From a virus, in IMG/VR virus record IMGVR_UViG_3300031973_001005, positions 1 through 22,941 of that record: DNA of 22,941 nt; one strand, 5' to 3'. A program made the position numbers and the translations under genes. A model generated the notes under the pieces. That model was not told the origin of the DNA, did not search any database, and saw only the letters and a program-made list of their open reading frames with translations. Shown piece by piece: positions 2,429 to 21,701 of the stretch (positions within the stretch are counted from its first letter, which is position 1; each line of letters starts with the position of its first letter).

Positions 2429-2914
2429 ATGACAAAGCAATGCACAAAATGTAAGAAACGAAAGAGCCTCCTGAGCTTTTTCTCCGATAGACAGAAAAGA
2501 GACGGACTTACATCGCACTGCAAAGTTTGTAAGAGGACGACACACTTGAGTTGGTACTGGAAAAACCAAGACGAAAGGAAAGAAAAAAGTGGTAAGTACT
2601 ATAAGACTAAATCTGGAGAAATAAAGAAATACGGTAGGGAGAGGTATAGGGAAATAGTGAACGAAATTTTTGAACTACTCGGCGAGAAGTGTTCTCGGTG
2701 CGGGTATGAGGATAAACGAGCTATCCAGATAGACCATGTAAATGGTGGCGGTAATAGAGAGAGAGTGGCTAGGGGTAACACAGTCCAGATTTACAAGGAC
2801 ATATTAGATGGCGCCAGGAACGGTAGTAAGGACTTTAAGCTGCTGTGTGCTAACTGCAACATAATCGAAGGCATAGAAAAAGGATACAAGAAATCTATAT
2901 GGCATCAAAAGTAG
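2429..2914 (+). CDS. HNH endonuclease with N-terminal zinc finger
   Basis: The 161-aa protein starts with a zinc-binding unit, C5-x2-C8 paired with C31-x2-C34, within a K/R-rich segment. It ends with an HNH nuclease: C88-x2-C91, then IDHVNGGG (101-108, catalytic H103), then LLCANCN (138-144) with C140-x2-C143 and N144. Paired cysteines around the H and N residues are typical of the zinc-supported HNH fold. Such genes act as free-standing homing endonucleases, or, when beside terminases in some HK97-like phages, as packaging cofactors. It lies between the large terminase and portal genes with one base before it and a 16-base overlap with the portal gene. Codon choice is looser and more A/T-rich than in the portal or capsid genes, which fits a recent insertion. 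Confidence 0.9.
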   Translation: MTKQCTKCKKRKSLLSFFSDRQKRDGLTSHCKVCKRTTHLSWYWKNQDERKEKSGKYYKTKSGEIKKYGRERYREIVNEIFELLGEKCSRCGYEDKRAIQIDHVNGGGNRERVARGNTVQIYKDILDGARNGSKDFKLLCANCNIIEGIEKGYKKSIWHQK

Positions 2915-4959
2915 AAACCATAGAGCAAATAGCCATTGAAACACTCCGTCAGCACGACGACTCGTTCAGCGAACTGAAAGAACGCTGGGCTTCTTTGTAT
3001 AACCGCTTTGAAAACAAGCTACGGGCTGGTTCAATTACGGCTGAGACTGAAGCGAAAGTCCGTCTCGGTCAGGCGTATGCCCTTGTGGAGAATGGCGTTT
3101 CACGAATCATGGCGCAGAGTCCTCGCTTCCGTTACCTCGCTAGAGAGAAAGGTGACACGAAGTCAGCCGATCTCTACAATGAGTTCTCAGAATATCAGCA
3201 CGACCAAGCTCGGAGCCAGGAAAAGTACGAAGAAGCCGCTAAATGGGCTCTTATCTGCGGTCTTTCAGGAATGAAGATGGGTTGGAAGACTGAGCGCATA
3301 GTCAGGAAGAAGCGAGCAAAAGAGGCTATCTTTGGGAAAGTCATTACTGACCCAACCCTTGTGTCCGTCATGGACAAGCTGAACTTTGGAAAGGATGTGA
3401 AAGTGGAGGAGGCAGAGGACATTTCTACCTGGACGATAGACGTTATCCGCCCGTTTGACCTCATCTGGGATAAAGAAGCAACCGACCCAGAGAATGCTAT
3501 GGTTCTTGGTTTCAAGGCCCGAAAGACCATGCGTTGGCTCAAGCAGAACGGATACGACACAGAGGCGTTTGAGGGAACGCTCAAAGCATCGGGAGATTAC
3601 TGGAAGAAACAAGTCTCAGCGTATAAAGAGGGGACCGATACGACCATAATTGTAGAGAACATTGTCTGTGAGGTAGCCGAGCTTTATGTCTCTTACCTAA
3701 ACGAGCAAGGAATTACAGAATACTGGGTAGTAACGTTAGCTGGTGCGGCTGACTCGAACATCAAGCCAGTGTCTTTGAAAACAGAAGAGAACCCATACGA
3801 CAAGAAGTTCGCTCCGATAGCAATTTTCCGGCCAATGAAGCGACCAGGAAAGTTCTATGGTTTCGGAATCATCGAGCCGGTCGAGTCGGTCATTGACGCC
3901 GAGGAAGACACGCTCAACATGACCATCGAGCAAGGCTGGGTAGACCTTTCTAAGCCGATTGAGTTTGACCCGAACAACGTTCTTGACCCAGACGGTATCC
4001 GCTACGGTGCCAGAGTCGCTATCCCTGTCCGTGAGATCGGGAAATCTGTTGGTGTTCTACAGACTGCAACCCCAAATGCCGGTGTCTCTTCATTCCTCAT
4101 GGGGTACCTCGAAAAGACCAAGCAGAACGTTTCAGCCATTACGGATTATCAGACTGGAGCGAATCAGTACAACAAGGGCGCACAGACAGCAACCGAAATC
4201 AATACGAAGACTTTTCTCTCAGACCAGAGAATCAACAAGATACTCAGGGCATTTGAAACAGATATGCTTGAGCGGACTGGACGGATGGCACTCTGGCTAA
4301 ACCAGCAGTATCTACAGGACACGGCGAAGGCGATATTCCGAATCCTCGGGAAAAAGGGTCAGATGCTAGAAAAGGAAATCAAGTTTAAGAACATTGAAGC
4401 TATTAAGGACTTGGCTGTCGTCCTTGGTTCATCAGCATATATTATGCAGACTGAAATGCGTAACAAATGGTCTTCTCTGCTCCAGCTCATGGCTCAAGAA
4501 GCAGTCTTGCCTCCTGGAGTCGGTGTTCCGCTCATGCGCGAGTACGCCTGGGAACGCCTAGCTGAAGAGGGCTACGGTATTAAAGACACGGAAAACCTCA
4601 TCCCATCTCTCAGAGAACGAGAAGAAGCAACCGTCCAGAAGAAGCTCGCAAACCTAGAAGACGCCAAGCAAGAGAATCTCGATCCGGCAACGGCAAGAGT
4701 TCTCCCCGATGACATCCATTCAGTCCACATTGCGCTTCACAAGGCTGCTCTCCAAGGTCAAGGCGCTCCTGGCCCAGATGGGCAGACGATTCCTTACACT
4801 CCTGAACAGATGGTCCTCATGACGTCTCACTTGAACGCCCATGTCGCCGCGGTGGGAGGACAGATGAGCGGTACGAACATGGCAATGGAACAGGCAGTCG
4901 GACAACAGATTCAAAATCAAGTAACACCTCAACAGCAACCAAATGGACCCGTACAGTAA
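2899..4959 (+). CDS. Portal protein
   Basis: This 686-aa protein follows the terminase and precedes scaffold and capsid genes, the normal portal slot. The first 150 residues are long helices (for example KYEEAAKWALICGLSGMKMG) as in the outer wing of portals. The block DVIRPFDLIWDKEATDP begins the core common to podovirus-type portals, and the segment GIIEPVESVIDAEEDTLNM resembles the conserved helix before the channel region. The C-terminus is rich in Gln, Pro and Ala (VTPQQQPNGPVQ), as in portals with an extended barrel or flexible tail. The length suits large podovirus portals. Twelve copies would form the channel at one capsid vertex, docking terminase during packaging and the adaptor afterwards. 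The start TATATG lies inside the HNH gene and lacks a Shine-Dalgarno site. Confidence 0.92.
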   Translation: MASKVETIEQIAIETLRQHDDSFSELKERWASLYNRFENKLRAGSITAETEAKVRLGQAYALVENGVSRIMAQSPRFRYLAREKGDTKSADLYNEFSEYQHDQARSQEKYEEAAKWALICGLSGMKMGWKTERIVRKKRAKEAIFGKVITDPTLVSVMDKLNFGKDVKVEEAEDISTWTIDVIRPFDLIWDKEATDPENAMVLGFKARKTMRWLKQNGYDTEAFEGTLKASGDYWKKQVSAYKEGTDTTIIVENIVCEVAELYVSYLNEQGITEYWVVTLAGAADSNIKPVSLKTEENPYDKKFAPIAIFRPMKRPGKFYGFGIIEPVESVIDAEEDTLNMTIEQGWVDLSKPIEFDPNNVLDPDGIRYGARVAIPVREIGKSVGVLQTATPNAGVSSFLMGYLEKTKQNVSAITDYQTGANQYNKGAQTATEINTKTFLSDQRINKILRAFETDMLERTGRMALWLNQQYLQDTAKAIFRILGKKGQMLEKEIKFKNIEAIKDLAVVLGSSAYIMQTEMRNKWSSLLQLMAQEAVLPPGVGVPLMREYAWERLAEEGYGIKDTENLIPSLREREEATVQKKLANLEDAKQENLDPATARVLPDDIHSVHIALHKAALQGQGAPGPDGQTIPYTPEQMVLMTSHLNAHVAAVGGQMSGTNMAMEQAVGQQIQNQVTPQQQPNGPVQ

Positions 4960-5949: not shown

Positions 5950-6840
5950 ATGGCATCCATTACAGGTTTGCACACCCCGACCACCAATGCGGTAGAAGTA
6001 CCGGAACTGTGGCCTGGTCTCGTGCTCGAATTTCAGAAAGAGAATCTCGTCATGGCCAATCTCGTCACCCGACGCGATATGGACGTGGCGAATGGTGGAG
6101 ACATCATCCACTTCCCGGTGACTGCGGCGGCTTCTGTCGTTGCGTACACCAACGGCAAGCGTGTCACTGATAACCTCTCGGCTAACACCGACACGGAGGT
6201 TACGCTGACCATCGACAAGTTCTACTTCAGCGGTTTCCACATCCCGTATCACCTCAAGGCCCAGTCGAAGTACGACATCAAGGCTGAACGTGCCCGGGCT
6301 GCTGGTCACGCGATTGCAAAGCAGATCGACACCGACCTCGCTGCGCTCGCCGACTCTCTCACCACGACTGACATCAATGACGCCTCTGCAACCGACCAGG
6401 TTGACGACCTCGTTATTGCTGACATCGTTGGTGCGTTCACGACCCTGAACAACAACAATGTACCGGATACGGACCGCTCCTGGGTGTTCCATCCGTCAGC
6501 GTACGGCGAACTGCTCAAGATGACTGGTAACTACTTCATCTCTTACGACTTCCGAAACGGCAAGCCGCTGGAGAACGGACTTATCGGTCAGATTCTCGGT
6601 TCCAATGTGTACCTCTCGACCAACACGGACACTGTTTCTGACGGTTCCCCGGCCGAGACGGCGATCAACAACCTTTACTTCCACCGTCAGGCGTTCGCGC
6701 TTGCGATGCAGGTTACTCCGGAAGTTGACGACGTGTACGATGCCGATACGATGGGCGACCTCTTCAACGTGAAGACCGCTTATGGTGTCGCAATGCTCCG
6801 TGGCGACCACGGTGTCTGCATCCGCACTGTGAACGACTAA
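5950..6840 (+). CDS. Major capsid protein, HK97 fold
   Basis: The 296-aa protein follows the scaffold gene by 8 bases and has the layout of HK97-fold major capsid proteins of podovirus-like phages. The N-terminal arm (VPELWPGLVLEFQKENLVM) leads into a beta E-loop region (GGDIIHFPVTAAASVVAYTN). A spine-helix segment follows (KAERARAAGHAIAKQIDTDL, about residues 112-131), then the A domain with VFHPSAYGELLKM. The C-terminal strand ends with a DHGV motif. It is a single-domain coat protein of ordinary length, without insertion or protease domain. The gene is more G/C-rich at third positions than its neighbours, as expected of the most highly expressed virion gene. A GC-rich hairpin follows at 6858-6880 with no T tract. 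The only near Shine-Dalgarno element is AAGG, two bases from ATG. Confidence 0.94.
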   Translation: MASITGLHTPTTNAVEVPELWPGLVLEFQKENLVMANLVTRRDMDVANGGDIIHFPVTAAASVVAYTNGKRVTDNLSANTDTEVTLTIDKFYFSGFHIPYHLKAQSKYDIKAERARAAGHAIAKQIDTDLAALADSLTTTDINDASATDQVDDLVIADIVGAFTTLNNNNVPDTDRSWVFHPSAYGELLKMTGNYFISYDFRNGKPLENGLIGQILGSNVYLSTNTDTVSDGSPAETAINNLYFHRQAFALAMQVTPEVDDVYDADTMGDLFNVKTAYGVAMLRGDHGVCIRTVND

Positions 6841-7091: not shown

Positions 7092-7736
7092 ATGGCGACA
7101 CAAGCCTCATACAAAACACTCGTCCAATCCGAGATTGATGACACCTCAGCGAAGCTCGCAACTGTCATAAATCAGGCGATTAAGGATGTCTATCAGGAGA
7201 TTCTTCTGTATACAGCCAAGTGGTTGGTTGGTACGAGCCAGGAAACGCAGGTCGGATCGACTTCAGTGCGCTATGTGACCCCGACTGCATTCATGCAGAT
7301 CACGGATGTCCAGTGGAAAGATGCCGGAGAGACGGATTATCGACAGCTTGACCCAATGGAAGAGCACGAATACCTCAAAAAGTACGTCAATACTGATACA
7401 GGAAGACCGACAAAGTGGTATGTGAATGGTTCTAAGGTATATTTTGACCGGATTCCCGACACGGTAGGTACGGCTCTCATAACTTACATACCAGTTCAGG
7501 ACGAATTAACGGGCGATGAAGTCTCAGTTATCCCAGATCGCTTCACCAGAGTCCTACTTATGGGTGTTATATGGCGCGTAAAGGCCTATGAACGGCTCCC
7601 AGAGGCCACTGAATACAAGAAGTGGTACAAAGGCCCGTTTTCTGAACAGGGACGCATAGATGGCGAATTAGGGGCCATGATTCAAGAGCTATCAAGCAAC
7701 CAACGAAGTAAGAAATTGAAGTTCTGGGGACGATAA
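7092..7736 (+). CDS. Head-tail adaptor / connector protein candidate
   Basis: The 214-aa protein sits in the slot after the capsid gene where podovirus-like genomes encode the ring that binds beneath the portal. The N-terminus is helical (TLVQSEIDDTSAKLATVINQ, then KDVYQEILLYTAKWLV). The middle is a beta barrel-like stretch with KWYVNGSKVYFDRIPD (108-123), a pattern seen in phage adaptor proteins. It is followed by the helix RFTRVLLMGVIWRVKAYERL and a basic C-terminal tail (KKLKFWGR) that could insert into the portal. Adaptors of the P22 gp4 and T7 gp11 type are of similar length. I see no motif that fixes the family. The start follows the previous stop by two bases, and the next gene starts one base after its own stop. 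Confidence 0.62.
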   Translation: MATQASYKTLVQSEIDDTSAKLATVINQAIKDVYQEILLYTAKWLVGTSQETQVGSTSVRYVTPTAFMQITDVQWKDAGETDYRQLDPMEEHEYLKKYVNTDTGRPTKWYVNGSKVYFDRIPDTVGTALITYIPVQDELTGDEVSVIPDRFTRVLLMGVIWRVKAYERLPEATEYKKWYKGPFSEQGRIDGELGAMIQELSSNQRSKKLKFWGR

Positions 7737-11524: not shown

Positions 11525-14500
11525 ATGGCAACTGAATATCAGACAACTGCAACGAAAAATCCATATGCGCCAAATGCGCAGAAGGCTAAGTTTCGATCTA
11601 CTCTAGGTGAGATAATGCGGAAACGCAAAGACCCAGAATACGCCCGTCATGTGCTAACGGATGTCATGGGAATAGACGAGGCCATTGTAGACCAAGAGCT
11701 GGTTCGGTATCAGGCGGTTTCAGCAGGTCAACCGGCACCACCGGAACAGGCGTTAGCTCCTGAGCTTTCCAGCCCGCAGCAGCAACGAGTGGATGCAATC
11801 AATACAGTCTCTTCTCTAATGAAGAACTATCGTGACTTATACGATAAATACACGACTGACGACGGACTAGGGATTCAAATTACTGGGGAACAGGCAGCAG
11901 AATTAAAGACAGCGAAGTCAACTATTGAATTTGCCATCGCAAACGCAGTTGGAACAGGAGCCTTGCAAGCTGCTGACCGTGCGGTTGTTCAGGATTTACT
12001 ACCAGACCCAACGGGTATTCTAAGCGGACTTGGAATTGCTGTTCGTGGTGGTAAAAAAGGTGCCTTAGCCTCGATTGACACCGCACTTGCACAGTTCAAA
12101 GCATCCAGAGAGACTATCGAAACTGGAAAGGCCGTACCAGTCGGTCCAATAGGAGCAAAAACACCTCCAGAAAACGGGAGCCTAAAAGTGGACACAAATA
12201 AAGAAGTGAATCTGAATACACCAGAAGAAGCAGCTAAGTGGGTTCAGCAGTTTCCAGACGACCCACGAGCGGAAGAGGTGAAGAAATCACTGGAGAGGGT
12301 CGGTTTCAAACCGAGCCAAGAGATGATAGATAGTTCAAGACAAGCTGTCATACAGGACCTTGTAAAGCAGGGCGTATCAGACCCAGTTGAGATCAAGAAA
12401 ATGCTGGACGAACAGTCGAGTTCACAAGGACTAGGGCAGTCAGATTTCAGCCTAGAAGAAATTAAGAAACTATCTGGCGCACCAAGCACTCCAAGTACAG
12501 GTACAAACACTGACTTCATAGCTCTAGGTGGGGCAGCTGGAGAAAGCATTGGTTCGTTTACTGGTGGAAACAAGATTGGTGAGGCTATAGGCAACATTGT
12601 TGGTGGAGCTTTGGCAAAATACGGTGACGCTGGCAGAACCTTCCAAGACACTCTCGCTAAATTGGCAGAAGCAAAAGCGAATGGGAAGATTACTGAAGAA
12701 CAGTTCAACAAAGCAGTTGCCATTCAAGAAAAGGGTGCTAAAGAGGCTTTTGGGTATAACGGGCCATCGCTCCGTGAAGTCGCTGGAGACGCTGTAAAAG
12801 CTGCCATCACCGTGCTTGGTGGAGCAGAAGTAAAAGGTGCAACATTTTTAGGGACAGTCGGTAGGGCTGCTCTCTGGGGTGGTGCGTACGGAGCCGCTGA
12901 TGCACAATCACAAGGGAAGGGAATGGCTGATACGCTCAAAGAGTCGGCGACTACTGCTGCTCTTTCTATTCTTTTCCCAATAGCTGGGGCTGTTGGGAGT
13001 AAGCTGCGGACTACGGCTTTTGGAAAGAATACTCCAGCCGAAGCATTGGGAGAGATTCTCCAAGGGAAAACCAAAGACCTGACCGCCGGGCAGAGGGTCT
13101 TTAAGGTACTCGATACAAAAGGTGTTGAGACATACGACCAGCTTGGACAGCGAACGGACGACTTCATTAGCGCCAGCGCACAGAAAGTCGACGAACTCCT
13201 TGGTAAAGACACCACGGTTCGGACGCTGGATGCTTTAGCAACTAAAGGCAAGACTCTCGGTGGGAAGGTAGTTTCTACCAATTACGTCGAGAAAGCTATG
13301 CAGCAACTCCAAGAACTCTACACGAAGGTTGGAGATGGTGTTTCGGCTGCTAACATGAGAGAGTTGCTTCAGAAGGCACGATCGCAAGGTTTGACTAACC
13401 TCGAAGTGAACCAACTGGCCCGCAAGTATAATATCGAGTTTGGTGACAGGGCCTTTAATAAGGTTGGTGATGCTTTGACCAGCGTCAACTCTCAGATGTA
13501 TGAGACTGTCCGTAAAGGTCTTAAGGACGTTGCGAGAAGTGGACTCAATGGAGAAGCAGCTAAGAACCTTGATTCACTTATCAGTGATGCGTACTCGGTA
13601 CGAACCCTTATCCGAAAGAACATCGAAAAGGTGAATGCTCTGGATCAACGAGTGGCTAAACGAAGCTGGGGCGAAAAGATTGGAAGAGGATTAGGGATTG
13701 CAACAGATACCATCACAGGTGGACTCCTTTCAGGATTCGTAAAGAAGTTCATCCCCAGTAACGTTGGTCTCAAGACACTCAATGCACTTGATTTGGAACA
13801 GGCACTCTCAAAAAACTTGAGAATCCTTGAGGAAGCGACCAAGGCGGAAACACCTGGCGCACTCATAAAGGCCATCAAGAAGCTTAATCGTGGGATCGTC
13901 AACAAAGTTAAAGGCAAAGGCGGCCTCTCTCTTCAGGATGTAACAAAACAACCAGGATATGACCCTCTCCTCCAAGAAGCCAGGAAGTATAAGAGTGCAG
14001 AGGAGTTTGTGAAGGCACAGGGAGATACTTTTTATCATGGCGGTACACCAATAAAAGAAGTGGGCAATATGCGAAGTCGTTGGAAGGCATTTTATATGTC
14101 TGAAAACCCGACTTACGCCAAGTCTCATGGTGGTAACGGCTCAAGCCTAAATGAGATGGTTCTCTCCAAAGGAGCCAAGATGGCTGACTTGCGTAAACCA
14201 AGTGAAGAACTTATTGCTCAACTAGACCAAGCAACAAAGGGGAGAACAACTGGGAAAACATTTAACATCCAAAAACCGGATGGCTCAACTGTCGGCGTCT
14301 CTGAAGTTATCGACCGACCTGACTTTGGTGCGTATACACAAAAACAAGTTATTGAAGGGATAAGACAAGGTAAAGCTCACTTCGCGGAAGAACCAGCCAT
14401 AAAAGAAGCACTGAAAAAACTTGGCTATGACGGGATGATTACGCAGGAGAGTAAGTTTGGAGCAAACTACGGCGTATGGAATAAGAATGTCGTCAAAACC

Positions 14501-14842
14501 AAATCCCAACTCACCGACCTCTGGAAGAAAGCTCATGGAGAGACTAAGAGAGGATTTGGTACTGGCGCAGGGAGAATGAAGAACGAGATGGAAAAGATTA
14601 GCCTCAATGTTGGTGAAGTCTACACGAAAGGAAAGAAGATTAAAGAATCTATCCTAAACGAGTTGGCGGATTTTACCGAATACGCTGCAAAGCAGAAACA
14701 AGGCAGTAAGATAGAGAGAATACCTGAAGAAATCAGGGCGAGGGCTATCGCAGAGAAGCTCGGAATTAACCCCGATGTATCAAACTGGATGCTATCAAAG
14801 AAGTTTGGAAAGCTCCTCAAAGAAAATAACTGGAATAGATAA
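11525..14842 (+). CDS. Large ejected virion protein with C-terminal ADP-ribosyltransferase-like domain
   Basis: The 1105-aa protein is the largest in the window. Residues 1-300 are helical and hydrophilic. Residues about 331-368 are Gly/Ala-rich (FIALGGAAGESIGSFTGG; GEAIGNIVGGALAKYG), and residues about 420-495 hold further hydrophobic segments (ATTAALSILFPIAGAVG), consistent with membrane insertion. A helical middle follows (540-780). Residues about 820-1000 look like an ART fold: FYHGG (836-840), AFYMSENPTYAKSHG (855-869), LGYDGMI with E975 shortly after, and NYGVWNKNVVK (981-991). These match in order the YHGT, FYxT-xxPxYA, GYDG and F/W-N-xx-V-K elements of phage-borne ARTs (polyvalent-protein type). 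ARTs move ADP-ribose from NAD+ to a target; T4 Alt is an injected precedent. The substrate is unknown. It starts in TAATATG context. Confidence 0.68.
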   Translation: MATEYQTTATKNPYAPNAQKAKFRSTLGEIMRKRKDPEYARHVLTDVMGIDEAIVDQELVRYQAVSAGQPAPPEQALAPELSSPQQQRVDAINTVSSLMKNYRDLYDKYTTDDGLGIQITGEQAAELKTAKSTIEFAIANAVGTGALQAADRAVVQDLLPDPTGILSGLGIAVRGGKKGALASIDTALAQFKASRETIETGKAVPVGPIGAKTPPENGSLKVDTNKEVNLNTPEEAAKWVQQFPDDPRAEEVKKSLERVGFKPSQEMIDSSRQAVIQDLVKQGVSDPVEIKKMLDEQSSSQGLGQSDFSLEEIKKLSGAPSTPSTGTNTDFIALGGAAGESIGSFTGGNKIGEAIGNIVGGALAKYGDAGRTFQDTLAKLAEAKANGKITEEQFNKAVAIQEKGAKEAFGYNGPSLREVAGDAVKAAITVLGGAEVKGATFLGTVGRAALWGGAYGAADAQSQGKGMADTLKESATTAALSILFPIAGAVGSKLRTTAFGKNTPAEALGEILQGKTKDLTAGQRVFKVLDTKGVETYDQLGQRTDDFISASAQKVDELLGKDTTVRTLDALATKGKTLGGKVVSTNYVEKAMQQLQELYTKVGDGVSAANMRELLQKARSQGLTNLEVNQLARKYNIEFGDRAFNKVGDALTSVNSQMYETVRKGLKDVARSGLNGEAAKNLDSLISDAYSVRTLIRKNIEKVNALDQRVAKRSWGEKIGRGLGIATDTITGGLLSGFVKKFIPSNVGLKTLNALDLEQALSKNLRILEEATKAETPGALIKAIKKLNRGIVNKVKGKGGLSLQDVTKQPGYDPLLQEARKYKSAEEFVKAQGDTFYHGGTPIKEVGNMRSRWKAFYMSENPTYAKSHGGNGSSLNEMVLSKGAKMADLRKPSEELIAQLDQATKGRTTGKTFNIQKPDGSTVGVSEVIDRPDFGAYTQKQVIEGIRQGKAHFAEEPAIKEALKKLGYDGMITQESKFGANYGVWNKNVVKTKSQLTDLWKKAHGETKRGFGTGAGRMKNEMEKISLNVGEVYTKGKKIKESILNELADFTEYAAKQKQGSKIERIPEEIRARAIAEKLGINPDVSNWMLSKKFGKLLKENNWNR

Positions 14843-18208: not shown

Positions 18209-20644
18209 ATGAAAGTCGGCCAAAAAATATACACGATATACGGCTATCTCGTCGTAACCGATAAACGCTACTCGGCTGTTTCAAACAGCGTGGTTTGGTA
18301 CGGGATGGATCAGTTTGGAACTGAATATGCTATCACGAAAGAAATTCTGAGAGAAGAACCGAAAGAAGTGGAGGAAAAAGAACCAGCTATTGAAGATGAT
18401 TTTGGAATTAAGTTCATAGCACGGGCAATTAAACTGAGACGCGGTATAAAGGGTGAAAAAGGCGATCGTGGGCCAGTCGGACCAGCCCCGTCAGACTCTT
18501 ACCTACTGAGTCTCATACGGCCACTTATCCCAGCTCCGCTAAAAGGAGAGAAAGGAGACGCACCGACCGCAGAAGAACTGTTGGCAATCATAAAGCCTCT
18601 CATACCTAAGCCGAAAAACGGAAAAACGCCTACAAAGACTGAGTTGCTGGCACTGATTAAACCGCTTATTCCAGAGCCAAAGAAAGGTGAGGACGGTTTA
18701 ACAGCGTACGAAATAGCGAAAAAGAACGGGTTTCAAGGAACCGAGAAAGAATGGCTGGCTTCTCTAAAAGGAAGAGACGGACTTAACGGTCTAAACGGAG
18801 GTGGAGGTGGTATCCACGAGATCAAACACGCCACGGACGTTGCGATTTCTAGTCCAACAAATGGTCAGGCATTAAAATATAATGCTACTACAGGGAAATG
18901 GGAGAACGGTACTGTTTCTGGTGGTTCTGGTACTCCTGGTGGTTCCGATACTCAAGTCCAATTTAATGATGGCGGGGCTTTTGGCGGAGAGGCAGGATTC
19001 ACATACAACAAAACAACCGATACTGTAACGGTTAGCTCAGCGAATGCTGACGCAATTGTTCAAGCCGGAGACAACGAAGTGAACATCGGAGCATCAAGCG
19101 ATGATGCCGTGAATATCGTTGGGAATAACCAGGTCATTTCCACCTTCAGCGGCTGGGAATACGGGGCGCAAGTTCTCCAGCAGTGGTGGGGCGACAAGAC
19201 CATTCTCCTGGTTTCAGCGCCATCGGCTAGCCCGGAGGAATCGACTGTCACCACGATGCTTGATTTGGGTAGTGGAAATAAGGAGTGGGTAGACTGGACA
19301 ATCGAGGATTACGCAGGGGTGGACCATAAGGCGTCTATCAATATCGCCAAAGCTGGGACTGGAACAATTGTCCCATTTGTCATCCGTACTTGGGACCAAG
19401 ACGCTGGAACAGTTGCCGCAGTCGGAAAAGAGTATTTCACCATCACACCTTCATCGGAAGTCGTCATCAATGAGTCAAGTCAGGACGTAAACTTCCGCGT
19501 CGAAGGCGATACAGAAGCTAATCTTATTTTTGCCGATGCTGGAACGGGAAGGGTGGCTATTGGAAACAATGCACCTGCAGCAAGACTTCATGTTACTGAT
19601 GTGCAGGACTCGTCCTCAGTTCAAGCCGCCATATTCGAGGGAAACCGAGCAACGCCAGCAACGAATGACCAGGTTTACGCCTCTTTCAAACTATCAGACT
19701 CGGCAGGAAATCAAGACGAATTTGTAAGAATAACAGCCAGGGCGACCGATGTTACATCGACATCTGAAGACGCAAGGCTTGGTTTCTCACTTATTGAGGC
19801 CGGGTCATTGACAGATGAGTTGTATTTGACTGCATCAGCACTTACTCCAGCAACTTCTGCCGGACTTAATCTTGGAAACTCAACAGAACCGTTCTCGAAC
19901 GTGTTCCTAGCTGCCGGAGCAGGTGTAAACATGGGTAACGGAGACGTAACAGTAAATAATCCAGCGACGAATGTTCTCCGATTCTCTGGTGCGTCAAGCG
20001 GATTCGAGTTCACTGATGGTCCAATCATTCCGGTTACAAGCGATGGAGTTGCGTTAGGCACTACGACAAAAATGTTCTCCGACCTCTTCCTCGCTTCTGG
20101 CGGCGTTATTAATTGGAACGCCGGAAACGCGACGCTGACCCATTCGGCAGGACTCCTGACGTCGAATGTCCCTCTTAGTCTTGGGACTTCCAACGCCCTT
20201 ACCTCAGGAACTATCGAACTCGGCCACGCTTCTGATACCACTCTCTCCCGTTCGGCGGCCGGTGTTCTTGCTGTCGAGGGAGTCGTCATCCCATCAATCT
20301 CTTCAACAAGTACTCTGACGAACAAGCGCGTTACTCCACGAACCGGCACGACTACTTCCTCTGCTACCCCGACTATTAACACGGACAACGTAGACTTCTA
20401 CTCTCTTACTGCCCAGGCTGCAGATATTACCTCATTCACCACGAACCTTTCAGGAACGCCGACCGAGGGGCAAAAGCTCTGGATTGCGATTACAGGTACG
20501 GCAGCGAGAGCGATCACATGGGGGTCTTCATTCGAGGCTTCGACTGTGGCTCTCCCGACTACAACCGTTTCAACGAACCGCCTTGATGTAGGGTTTGTCT
20601 GGAACACGGTCACTTCTAAATGGCGCTGCGTGGCGACATGCTAA
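18209..20644 (+). CDS. Collagen-like tail fibre with trimeric beta head
   Basis: The start is taken at ATG 18209, one base after the previous stop (TAGTATG, as at 10230), rather than ATG 18200 inside the previous gene. The 811-aa product begins with a small anchor domain (1-65). Gly-X-Y collagen-like segments (GIKGEKGDRGPVG, about 79-91) alternate with three repeats of LL-x-x-I-[RK]-PLIP (99, 124, 146). TAYEIAKKNGFQGTEKEWLA (about 165-184) is a module frequent beside collagen repeats. It is followed by GRDGLNGLNG and a glycine run. QVQFNDGGAFGGEAGFTYN (249-267) begins a beta stalk, and the last 110 residues (SATPTINTDNVDFYSLTAQA; GTAARAITWGSSFEA) form a widespread fibre-tip domain. Collagen helices and these heads trimerise. 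It is probably the main receptor-binding fibre. No chaperone peptidase S74 is visible. Confidence 0.82.
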   Translation: MKVGQKIYTIYGYLVVTDKRYSAVSNSVVWYGMDQFGTEYAITKEILREEPKEVEEKEPAIEDDFGIKFIARAIKLRRGIKGEKGDRGPVGPAPSDSYLLSLIRPLIPAPLKGEKGDAPTAEELLAIIKPLIPKPKNGKTPTKTELLALIKPLIPEPKKGEDGLTAYEIAKKNGFQGTEKEWLASLKGRDGLNGLNGGGGGIHEIKHATDVAISSPTNGQALKYNATTGKWENGTVSGGSGTPGGSDTQVQFNDGGAFGGEAGFTYNKTTDTVTVSSANADAIVQAGDNEVNIGASSDDAVNIVGNNQVISTFSGWEYGAQVLQQWWGDKTILLVSAPSASPEESTVTTMLDLGSGNKEWVDWTIEDYAGVDHKASINIAKAGTGTIVPFVIRTWDQDAGTVAAVGKEYFTITPSSEVVINESSQDVNFRVEGDTEANLIFADAGTGRVAIGNNAPAARLHVTDVQDSSSVQAAIFEGNRATPATNDQVYASFKLSDSAGNQDEFVRITARATDVTSTSEDARLGFSLIEAGSLTDELYLTASALTPATSAGLNLGNSTEPFSNVFLAAGAGVNMGNGDVTVNNPATNVLRFSGASSGFEFTDGPIIPVTSDGVALGTTTKMFSDLFLASGGVINWNAGNATLTHSAGLLTSNVPLSLGTSNALTSGTIELGHASDTTLSRSAAGVLAVEGVVIPSISSTSTLTNKRVTPRTGTTTSSATPTINTDNVDFYSLTAQAADITSFTTNLSGTPTEGQKLWIAITGTAARAITWGSSFEASTVALPTTTVSTNRLDVGFVWNTVTSKWRCVATC
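18503..18703 (+). repeat. In-gene repeat encoding LL-x-x-I-[RK]-PLIP modules
   Basis: Three degenerate repeats of 22-25 codons encode LLSLIRPLIP, LLAIIKPLIP and LLALIKPLIP, each followed by x-P and a Gly-rich charged linker. The codons differ between copies, so the repeat is old at the DNA level but kept in the protein. It lies within the collagen-like part of the fibre. Confidence 0.75.
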
Positions 20645-20645
20645 T

Positions 20646-21701
20646 ATGGCCTACTCAAACGGATACACTTATCGGAAGAAAATTACCGTAGACGCCACCA
20701 AGGTATCTGGGGCTGGTTCTCTTACAGATTTTCCGTTTCTCGTTTCTCACACTGACGCCGCGTTGAAGACGACTGCTAACGGCGGGAAAGTTGAAAATTC
20801 ATCTGGTTACGATATCCGTTTTGAAACCACCGGTGGCACAGAACTCGACTACGAGCGGCTTCTCTATGTCGCAACGACTGGACAAATAATCGCTTGGGTA
20901 CAAGCGACGATAGATGGCACAACGAGCACGGAGATTTACCTGTACTACGGAAATTCGTCTATTTCCACTGACCAATCTGACCCGACAGGAACATGGGATG
21001 CAAACTATAAAGGTGTCTGGCATATGACCGAAGACCCGTCCGGTTCTGCTCCACAACTCCTCGATTCGACATCGAACAACTACGACATGACAACAGCCGG
21101 GTCGATGACGTCTGGCGACCTCGTGACTGGTCAGATATATAAGGCCATAGACTTCGACGGAACAGATGATGAGGCAAAGAACACTGCTTGGGCTTCAGTC
21201 ATCGATGAAAATGACGCATTCACTATTGAGCACTGGTTCAACATCTCCTCTACCCCAAACTCTCAGATGGTGGCCTGGGGTGAGGCTGGGGCAAATAACC
21301 TTGCTTCTACTGGTACCTATGGAAATGAAATTGGGTATCTAGGGTATGCAAACGACCACGTTGTTTCTGCTGCCCCTTATGACGACGGCGCTTGGCATCA
21401 CCTGGTTGTCACCCACGATGGGTCAACAATGAAGGTATTGATTGATGGTTCACAGGTCCTTTCTGATAGCACCACAACTGGGATAAACGCCTCACAAGAC
21501 CTCTACTTCGCCAGATGGAAGGACGGAGGATTCTACCCAGCAAAACTGGAAGAAATCCGTATCTCTACAGGCGCACGGAGCAACGACTGGGCCATCACTA
21601 CATACGAAACAGCAAAGAATCCCAGCACTTTCTATTCGCTCGGTACGGAGGAAACATCTAGCGCTACAGTAAACAGTAATTTCTTTATGTTTTTTAACTA
21701 A
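20646..21701 (+). CDS. DUF2341-LamG surface protein
   Basis: The start is ATG 20646 in TAATATG, one base after the fibre stop; an ATG 51 bases upstream would lie inside the fibre gene. Residues 5-105 follow DUF2341: YTYRKKITVDATKV, then LTDFPFLVSHTD, DIRFETTGGTELDYE, and the closing EIYLYYGN. Residues about 120-330 form a concanavalin A/LamG-like lectin domain (KAIDFDGTDDEA; FTIEHWFN; DGAWHHLVVTHDGSTMKVLI), the classic jelly-roll core. The C-terminus ends NSNFFMFFN, a hydrophobic tail seen on similar proteins. This pairing is frequent in surface and phage proteins and is thought to bind glycans. Here it is the last virion-type gene, presumably a receptor-binding or decoration protein. Confidence 0.82.
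   Translation: MAYSNGYTYRKKITVDATKVSGAGSLTDFPFLVSHTDAALKTTANGGKVENSSGYDIRFETTGGTELDYERLLYVATTGQIIAWVQATIDGTTSTEIYLYYGNSSISTDQSDPTGTWDANYKGVWHMTEDPSGSAPQLLDSTSNNYDMTTAGSMTSGDLVTGQIYKAIDFDGTDDEAKNTAWASVIDENDAFTIEHWFNISSTPNSQMVAWGEAGANNLASTGTYGNEIGYLGYANDHVVSAAPYDDGAWHHLVVTHDGSTMKVLIDGSQVLSDSTTTGINASQDLYFARWKDGGFYPAKLEEIRISTGARSNDWAITTYETAKNPSTFYSLGTEETSSATVNSNFFMFFN

What the first reader, a model, noticed from the sequence alone, without database searches (positions are those of the whole stretch)
14021..14530. ADP-ribosyltransferase-like domain at the end of a virion-ejected protein
Residues about 820-1000 of the 1105-aa protein contain, in order, FYHGG, AFYMSENPTYAKSHG, GYDGMI with a nearby Glu (E975), and NYGVWNKNVVK. 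This is the element order of ART toxins and of ART domains in phage polyvalent proteins. Combined with Gly-rich hydrophobic segments upstream in the same chain, the protein looks like a delivery vehicle that brings an NAD-dependent enzyme into the cell with the DNA, like T4 Alt but inside an ejection-type protein. The target could be RNA polymerase, a defence protein or a nucleic acid.
Basis: partly seen in the sequence, partly recalled or inferred. Interest (0 to 1): 0.7.

Follow-up and report, generated by a model that had tools for sequence, protein, structure and literature searches.

The report
Swappable ADP-ribosyltransferase cassette in phage protein
A big protein from a bacterial virus, probably injected into the cell with the DNA, ends in a predicted ADP-ribosyltransferase enzyme, and that enzyme sits between two short DNA stretches that are nearly identical in dozens of otherwise unrelated viruses carrying different enzymes, so it looks like an interchangeable tool in a standard holder.

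Summary
Residues ~834-989 of the 1105-aa protein (window 11525-14842) are an ADP-ribosyltransferase (ART) domain of the known ART-PolyVal family. AlphaFold2 on a 30-row alignment gives pLDDT 94.8; Foldseek finds AcrIF11, MbcT, tankyrase, PARP4, a cyanophage pre-ejectosome chain and viral ART-PolyVal proteins. H838 and the Y857 column are conserved; E975 is not family-wide (7/30 rows), D969 (26/30) is the better third residue. Injection and catalysis were not tested.

The unexpected part is the frame around it. A 5' arm (13965-14023) and a 3' arm (14492-14533) recur, in frame, in 34 loci (window included) around different cargo: mostly ARTs, also a GNAT, a ParB-like domain and unassigned domains. 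DNA similarity among these loci is almost confined to the arms (208 and 168 locus pairs, against 6 in cargo and 4 elsewhere). In pairs with homologous backbones, silent sites are saturated in the backbone but not in the arms (40% versus 81% same codon). Cargo relatedness ignores arm type. Best reading: an exchangeable effector cassette, swapped by recombination at conserved arms, on a virion protein. I found no description of the arms in the papers searched. The recombination mechanism is inferred.

The parts
11525..14842 (+). 1105-aa protein in the structural (late) gene block; candidate virion/ejection protein that carries the cassette
   Evidence: ORF. Same-strand block with terminase (1051-2427), portal (2899-4959), major head protein (5950-6840) and SU10-type adaptor (7092-7736). 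Virion location inferred, not shown.
12530..13801 (+). Backbone, residues 336-759, homologous to residues 100-508 of a 1090-aa protein in L066 that carries a different ART cargo
   Evidence: 35% identity over 436 columns, E=7e-51
13965..14023 (+). 5' arm (F type): ...GAAGCCAGGAAGTATAAGAGTGCAGAGGAGTTTGTGAAGGCACAGGGA, encodes EARKYKSAEEFVKAQG; predicted helix 825-832
   Evidence: DNA model R1, 55.6 bits, E=2e-15; conservation stops at the arm edges; helix in the AF2 model
14024..14491 (+). Cargo: ADP-ribosyltransferase domain of ART-PolyVal type, residues 834-989
   Evidence: Pfam PF18760 E=0.013 for the window copy, 2.5e-4 and 1.3e-5 for close copies, 4e-21 for a distant copy; AF2 pLDDT 94.8; Foldseek
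14036..14038 (+). H838, strand-1 histidine of the ART signature
   Evidence: 29 of 30 rows H
14093..14095 (+). Y857, strand-2 tyrosine of the ART signature
   Evidence: 19 Y, 4 F, 3 W of 30
14429..14431 (+). D969 of GYDG, best candidate for the third residue of the published H-Y-D signature
   Evidence: 26 of 30 rows D; H-Y-D from PMC5512222; assignment inferred
14447..14449 (+).
   Evidence: 7 of 30 rows E
14492..14533 (+). 3' arm (K-TDI type): GTCAAAACCAAATCCCAACTCACCGACCTCTGGAAGAAAGCT (starts one codon inside), encodes VKTKSQLTDLW(KKA); predicted helix 993-1003
   Evidence: DNA model R2, 38.3 bits, E=7e-10 at 14492-14532; alignment A7; helix

Best explanation
The segment is the ADP-ribosyltransferase cargo of an exchangeable effector cassette built into a phage virion protein. 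Two short DNA arms encode the N- and C-terminal helices that frame the cargo. They stay nearly the same in sequence while the domain between them is replaced, in frame, by a different effector domain. The arms are short homologies at which cargo is exchanged between co-infecting or resident phages by homologous recombination; the same arm peptides give each cargo a compatible join to the backbone. The carrier protein most likely enters the cell with the phage DNA, where the ART uses NAD+ to modify a host macromolecule, plausibly a defence or transcription component. Shown: the ART fold prediction, the arms, the variety of cargo, independent assortment of arm type and cargo, and excess synonymous conservation in the arms. 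Inferred: homologous recombination as the agent, injection, catalysis and target.
For: AF2 pLDDT 94.8, pTM 0.85. Fold hits: 6kyf AcrIF11 (prob 1.00), 6fkg MbcT, tankyrase, PARP4, 9k3a_B cyanophage pre-ejectosome; viral ART-PolyVal proteins to E=4.5e-8. Pfam ART-PolyVal in 26 of 30 rows. 35 distinct bracketed cassettes. Information content confined to the arms. 208 and 168 of 561 locus pairs share 5' and 3' arm DNA, against 6 pairs in cargo and 4 elsewhere. Six disjoint pairs with homologous backbones: same codon 100/124 in arms, 677/1684 in backbone, Fisher p=7e-19. Arm types pair, p=5e-8, yet cargo homology crosses types: W-W 3/120, F-F 21/171, W-F 21/304. Non-ART cargo: GNAT and ParB-like. 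Window and L066: homologous backbone, different ART. Some 3' arms look chimeric (L102). Two tandem cassettes in L070 and L112.
Against: The window copy alone is below the Pfam cut-off (16.7 versus 31.2 bits). Foldseek against PDB gives no hit below E=0.001 and modest TM-scores. The third catalytic position is variable, so some members may be inactive. No proteomics, so virion location is unproven. Loci were found by arm or ART peptide patterns, so their number is no estimate of frequency, though the patterns allowed synonymous codons. No pair of near-identical viruses differing only in cargo was found.
Confidence: 0.62

Rival explanations
1. Ordinary ART-PolyVal domain in a polyvalent virion protein; the arms are just the domain's own terminal helices, conserved at protein level.
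For: The family is known and common in phage polyvalent proteins (PMC5512222). Most cargo found is ART-PolyVal. In the model the arms are helices flanking the domain.
Against: The same arms flank GNAT, ParB-like and unassigned cargo. Arms lie mostly outside the Pfam profile match. The ART domains of Tunturiibacter phage Tunturi_5 have no arms. Protein-level selection does not explain silent-site conservation of 81% versus 40% in backbone.
Confidence: 0.17
2. A dedicated mobile element: the arms are sites of a specific recombinase or endonuclease that moves in-frame domain cassettes.
For: Sharp arm edges, DNA conservation across viruses with no other similarity, tandem cassettes.
Against: No recombinase was identified and none was systematically sought. 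Arms are not inverted repeats of each other by eye, and no hairpin is shared by the arm types. Homologous recombination suffices.
Confidence: 0.12
3. The arms are protein docking or cleavage helices that anchor or release any cargo, and their DNA similarity reflects only recent spread.
For: Peptides EARKYKSAEEFVKAQG and IKTKSQLTDIWNKA are predicted helices; arm types pair at the two ends.
Against: Needs recent spread among viruses whose backbones are saturated at silent sites; that spread is itself cassette exchange.
Confidence: 0.09

Closest known systems
ART-PolyVal (Pfam PF18760), ARTs of phage polyvalent proteins (Iyer et al. 2017, PMC5512222)
   Same: Fold, H and Y motif order, conserved GYDG region, setting in a large protein among virion genes
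   Different: Window copy scores below the family cut-off; it has a longer segment before the last hairpin and N at 981; DNA-conserved arms were not found described in that paper
AcrIF11 (PDB 6kyf; PMC12421852)
   Same: ART fold in a phage protein, Foldseek probability 1.00
   Different: Free-standing small protein with a known target (Csy1/Cas8f); here a domain of an 1105-aa protein, target unknown
T4 Alt
   Same: Proposed mode: ART delivered with phage DNA
   Different: Alt belongs to the R-S-E clade (PMC5512222); this is H-Y type and a fused, bracketed domain
Cyanophage A4 pre-ejectosome chain (PDB 9k3a_B)
   Same: Best PDB fold match, in an ejectosome chain
   Different: No sequence match of the whole protein; arms not examined there
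Polymorphic toxins with exchangeable C-terminal domains (from general knowledge)
   Same: Constant part plus swapped effector domains
   Different: Constant sequence lies on both sides of the cargo, is DNA-conserved, and cassettes can be internal and tandem

Membership tests
ART-PolyVal (PF18760) | Profile match over the curated cut-off | tested here: not met
   Window copy 16.7 bits versus 31.2; related cassettes L010 and L011 exceed it, 26 of 30 rows match at E<=0.01. So it is filed as a divergent relative, linked through intermediates, not as a certified member.
ART-PolyVal (PF18760) | ART fold | tested here: met
   AF2 pLDDT 94.8; Foldseek to ARTs
ART-PolyVal (PF18760) | H in strand 1, Y in strand 2 | tested here: met
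   H838 29/30, Y857 19/30 plus F/W, both within predicted strands 833-840 and 856-859
ART-PolyVal (PF18760) | Asp in strand 5 | tested here: inconclusive
   D969 26/30 lies just before a strand; no coordinates available to place it in the pocket
ART-PolyVal (PF18760) | NAD+-dependent transferase activity | not testable with these tools
   needs protein
Polyvalent protein | Two or more domains of different activity in one phage or plasmid protein near virion genes | tested here: inconclusive
   Only the ART was assigned in the window protein; position among virion genes met
T4 Alt-type ART | R-S-E active site | tested here: not met
   H-Y motifs instead
Virion ejection protein | Present in virion and transferred to the cell | not testable with these tools
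   gene position and fold match only

The most novel reading that the evidence does not exclude
The arms define a dedicated, widely shared exchange system for effector domains in virion proteins of uncultivated phages, including phages of Patescibacteria (CPR), in which a recombinase or arm-directed recombination moves in-frame cassettes between unrelated viruses, so that phages assemble their injected arsenals from a common pool.
Probability: 0.2. Interest if true: 0.85.

Novelty: new variant of a known kind. Interest (0 to 1): 0.62.

Why it matters
If right, it gives a sequence handle (two short arms) for finding injected phage effectors of any fold, including the unassigned cargos here, without knowing their families. 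It also makes testable how phages renew their early anti-host proteins, for which recombination cassettes have only been suggested (PMC5512222, section on kinases). The ART itself is a candidate early inhibitor of host defence or transcription.

Tried and rejected
Single-sequence AF2 of residues 800-1105 was uninformative (pLDDT 40). tblastn of the protein or domain in isolated phages and plasmids found nothing significant. Tunturi_5, the best isolated-phage hit to a bracket query, has ART domains but no arms. PHROGs gave nothing for this protein. A profile match to D-tagatose epimerase was dropped: weak, partial, different fold. Hairpins as recombination sites: not shared by the arm types. 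Upstream 346-aa gene as a shared partner: no homologue in 20 related loci. Arms in cellular genomes: 2 of 380 in the phylum of L011, 1 of 200 in that of L010, itself, so they are not a common chromosomal repeat. Rfam: no match in the window. Arm peptides in the literature: none.

Full report
What is there. The window is a fragment of a tailed-phage genome with terminase, portal, major head protein and an SU10-type adaptor in one same-strand block. The 1105-aa protein at 11525-14842 follows in the same block. Profile searches of the whole protein found no ART. The excised domain hits only Pfam ART-PolyVal, weakly (E=0.013).

Relatives. Scans of viral contigs found three further close members: L003/L004 (about 61% identity), L008/L014 (about 58%), L015/L016 (about 50%). 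They score 2.5e-4, 1.3e-5 and 0.006 against ART-PolyVal. More distant relatives found with the same alignment, L011 and L010, score 4e-21 and 1.6e-9. So the window domain joins the family through intermediates.

Fold. AlphaFold2 on a 30-row alignment (A8) gave pLDDT 94.8 and pTM 0.85. Foldseek against PDB ranks a cyanophage A4 pre-ejectosome chain, the anti-CRISPR ART AcrIF11 (6kyf, probability 1.00), the toxin MbcT, tankyrase 2 and PARP4 among its best matches; E-values are above 0.001 and the remaining list is noise. The viral library gives ART-PolyVal proteins and other large phage proteins with E down to 4.5e-8. H838 is 29/30 and Y857 mostly Y. E975 is 7/30. The column of N981, which by its NEYVVFD-like context resembles the PARP glutamate (my reading), is E 10, N 7, H 5. 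D969 of GYDG is 26/30. The published signature is H-Y-D, so D969 is my choice, unproven.

The brackets. Comparing the window protein with L004 showed similarity confined to residues 824-1002, and hits from the wider scan included several that matched only the first ~20 residues of the query. Those proteins have the same start, EAKKYKSAEEFVKAQG or AKASGQSFDEWVKGQG, and the same end, IKTKSQLTDIW or IKTRSQLKAEW, around other domains. A regular-expression census over all loci gave 35 distinct cassettes in 34 loci, window included. Cargo: ART-PolyVal in most; a GNAT (L060) and a weak ParB_N match (L073); several with no Pfam match.

The arms are conserved as DNA. Per-column information averages about 1.3-1.75 bits inside the arms and about 0.1-0.3 well outside. 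Blastn among 34 loci found 208 pairs sharing the 5' arm and 168 sharing the 3' arm, but cargo DNA in 6 pairs and anything outside the cassette in 4. At identical residues, the same codon is used in 76-85% of cases, against 44-53% expected from codon usage. The sharpest control uses pairs of proteins with homologous backbones: same-codon rate 0.396 in backbone (expected 0.421) and 0.737 in arms (expected 0.439) over 14 overlapping pairs; in six disjoint pairs 677/1684 and 100/124, p=7e-19. So arms are younger than the backbones that carry them, or constrained as DNA. The search patterns allowed synonymous codons, so they did not create this.

Exchange. The 5' and 3' arms come in matched types (W with R-KAE, F with K-TDI; 33 of 35, p=5e-8), with a recombinant-looking 3' arm in L102 (first half as in the F type, second half as in the W type). 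Cargo homology ignores type: 3 of 120 W-W, 21 of 171 F-F and 21 of 304 W-F pairs. The window cargo and its closest relative L003 lie in different arm types. Homologous backbones carry different cargo: window and L066, L090 and L093, L082 and L102, L074 and L082, L056 and L060. Tandem cassettes occur in L070 and L112.

Hosts. The virus of L063/L092 reads TGA as glycine within its cassette, as Gracilibacteria and Absconditabacteria do (general knowledge). L011 lies in a Woesebacteria bin, and a second genome of that phylum has two arms. Some of these viruses therefore probably infect Patescibacteria. The host of the window virus is unknown; the terminase search gave only distant hits.

How it probably works. 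Carrier protein packed in the virion, entering with the DNA; the ART modifies a host target using NAD+. AcrIF11 shows that a phage ART can disable a defence complex (PMC12421852). Arms provide homology for in-frame replacement. Each step after the sequence facts is inference.

Novelty. The ART domain is a divergent relative within a known kind. The paired DNA-conserved arms around diverse effector cargo were not found by term searches in the two key papers or by searching the arm peptides in full text; absence from that library is not proof of novelty.

Noticed in passing
L063:3978-4566 (L092:4236-4824): Cassette interrupted by eleven in-frame TGA codons, several where glycine is expected (YH*T for YHGT); read with code 25 it is open to a TAA, so the virus likely infects a TGA=Gly bacterium.
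   Followed up: partly
L112 (G237 contig 40): Patescibacteria genome contig with an open frame that holds two tandem cassettes, one with truncated arm motifs; cargo not assigned.
   Followed up: no
L066, protein residues ~670-830: A second ART-like unit (IQEAKKLFHHTDVKIG...GEGIYATN) just before the bracketed one, with only a remnant of the 5' arm.
   Followed up: no
L083:9392-9852: Cassette with a broken reading frame after the ART start, possibly a decaying copy or an assembly error.
   Followed up: no
window 20595-21701: Protein with a laminin-G/concanavalin-like lectin domain (PF13385, 1.3e-15) and DUF2341, downstream of the collagen-like tail protein; likely a receptor or glycan binder.
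   Followed up: no
window 2429-2914: Protein with CxxC motifs and an HNH-like look between terminase and portal, possibly a homing endonuclease or packaging nuclease.
   Followed up: no
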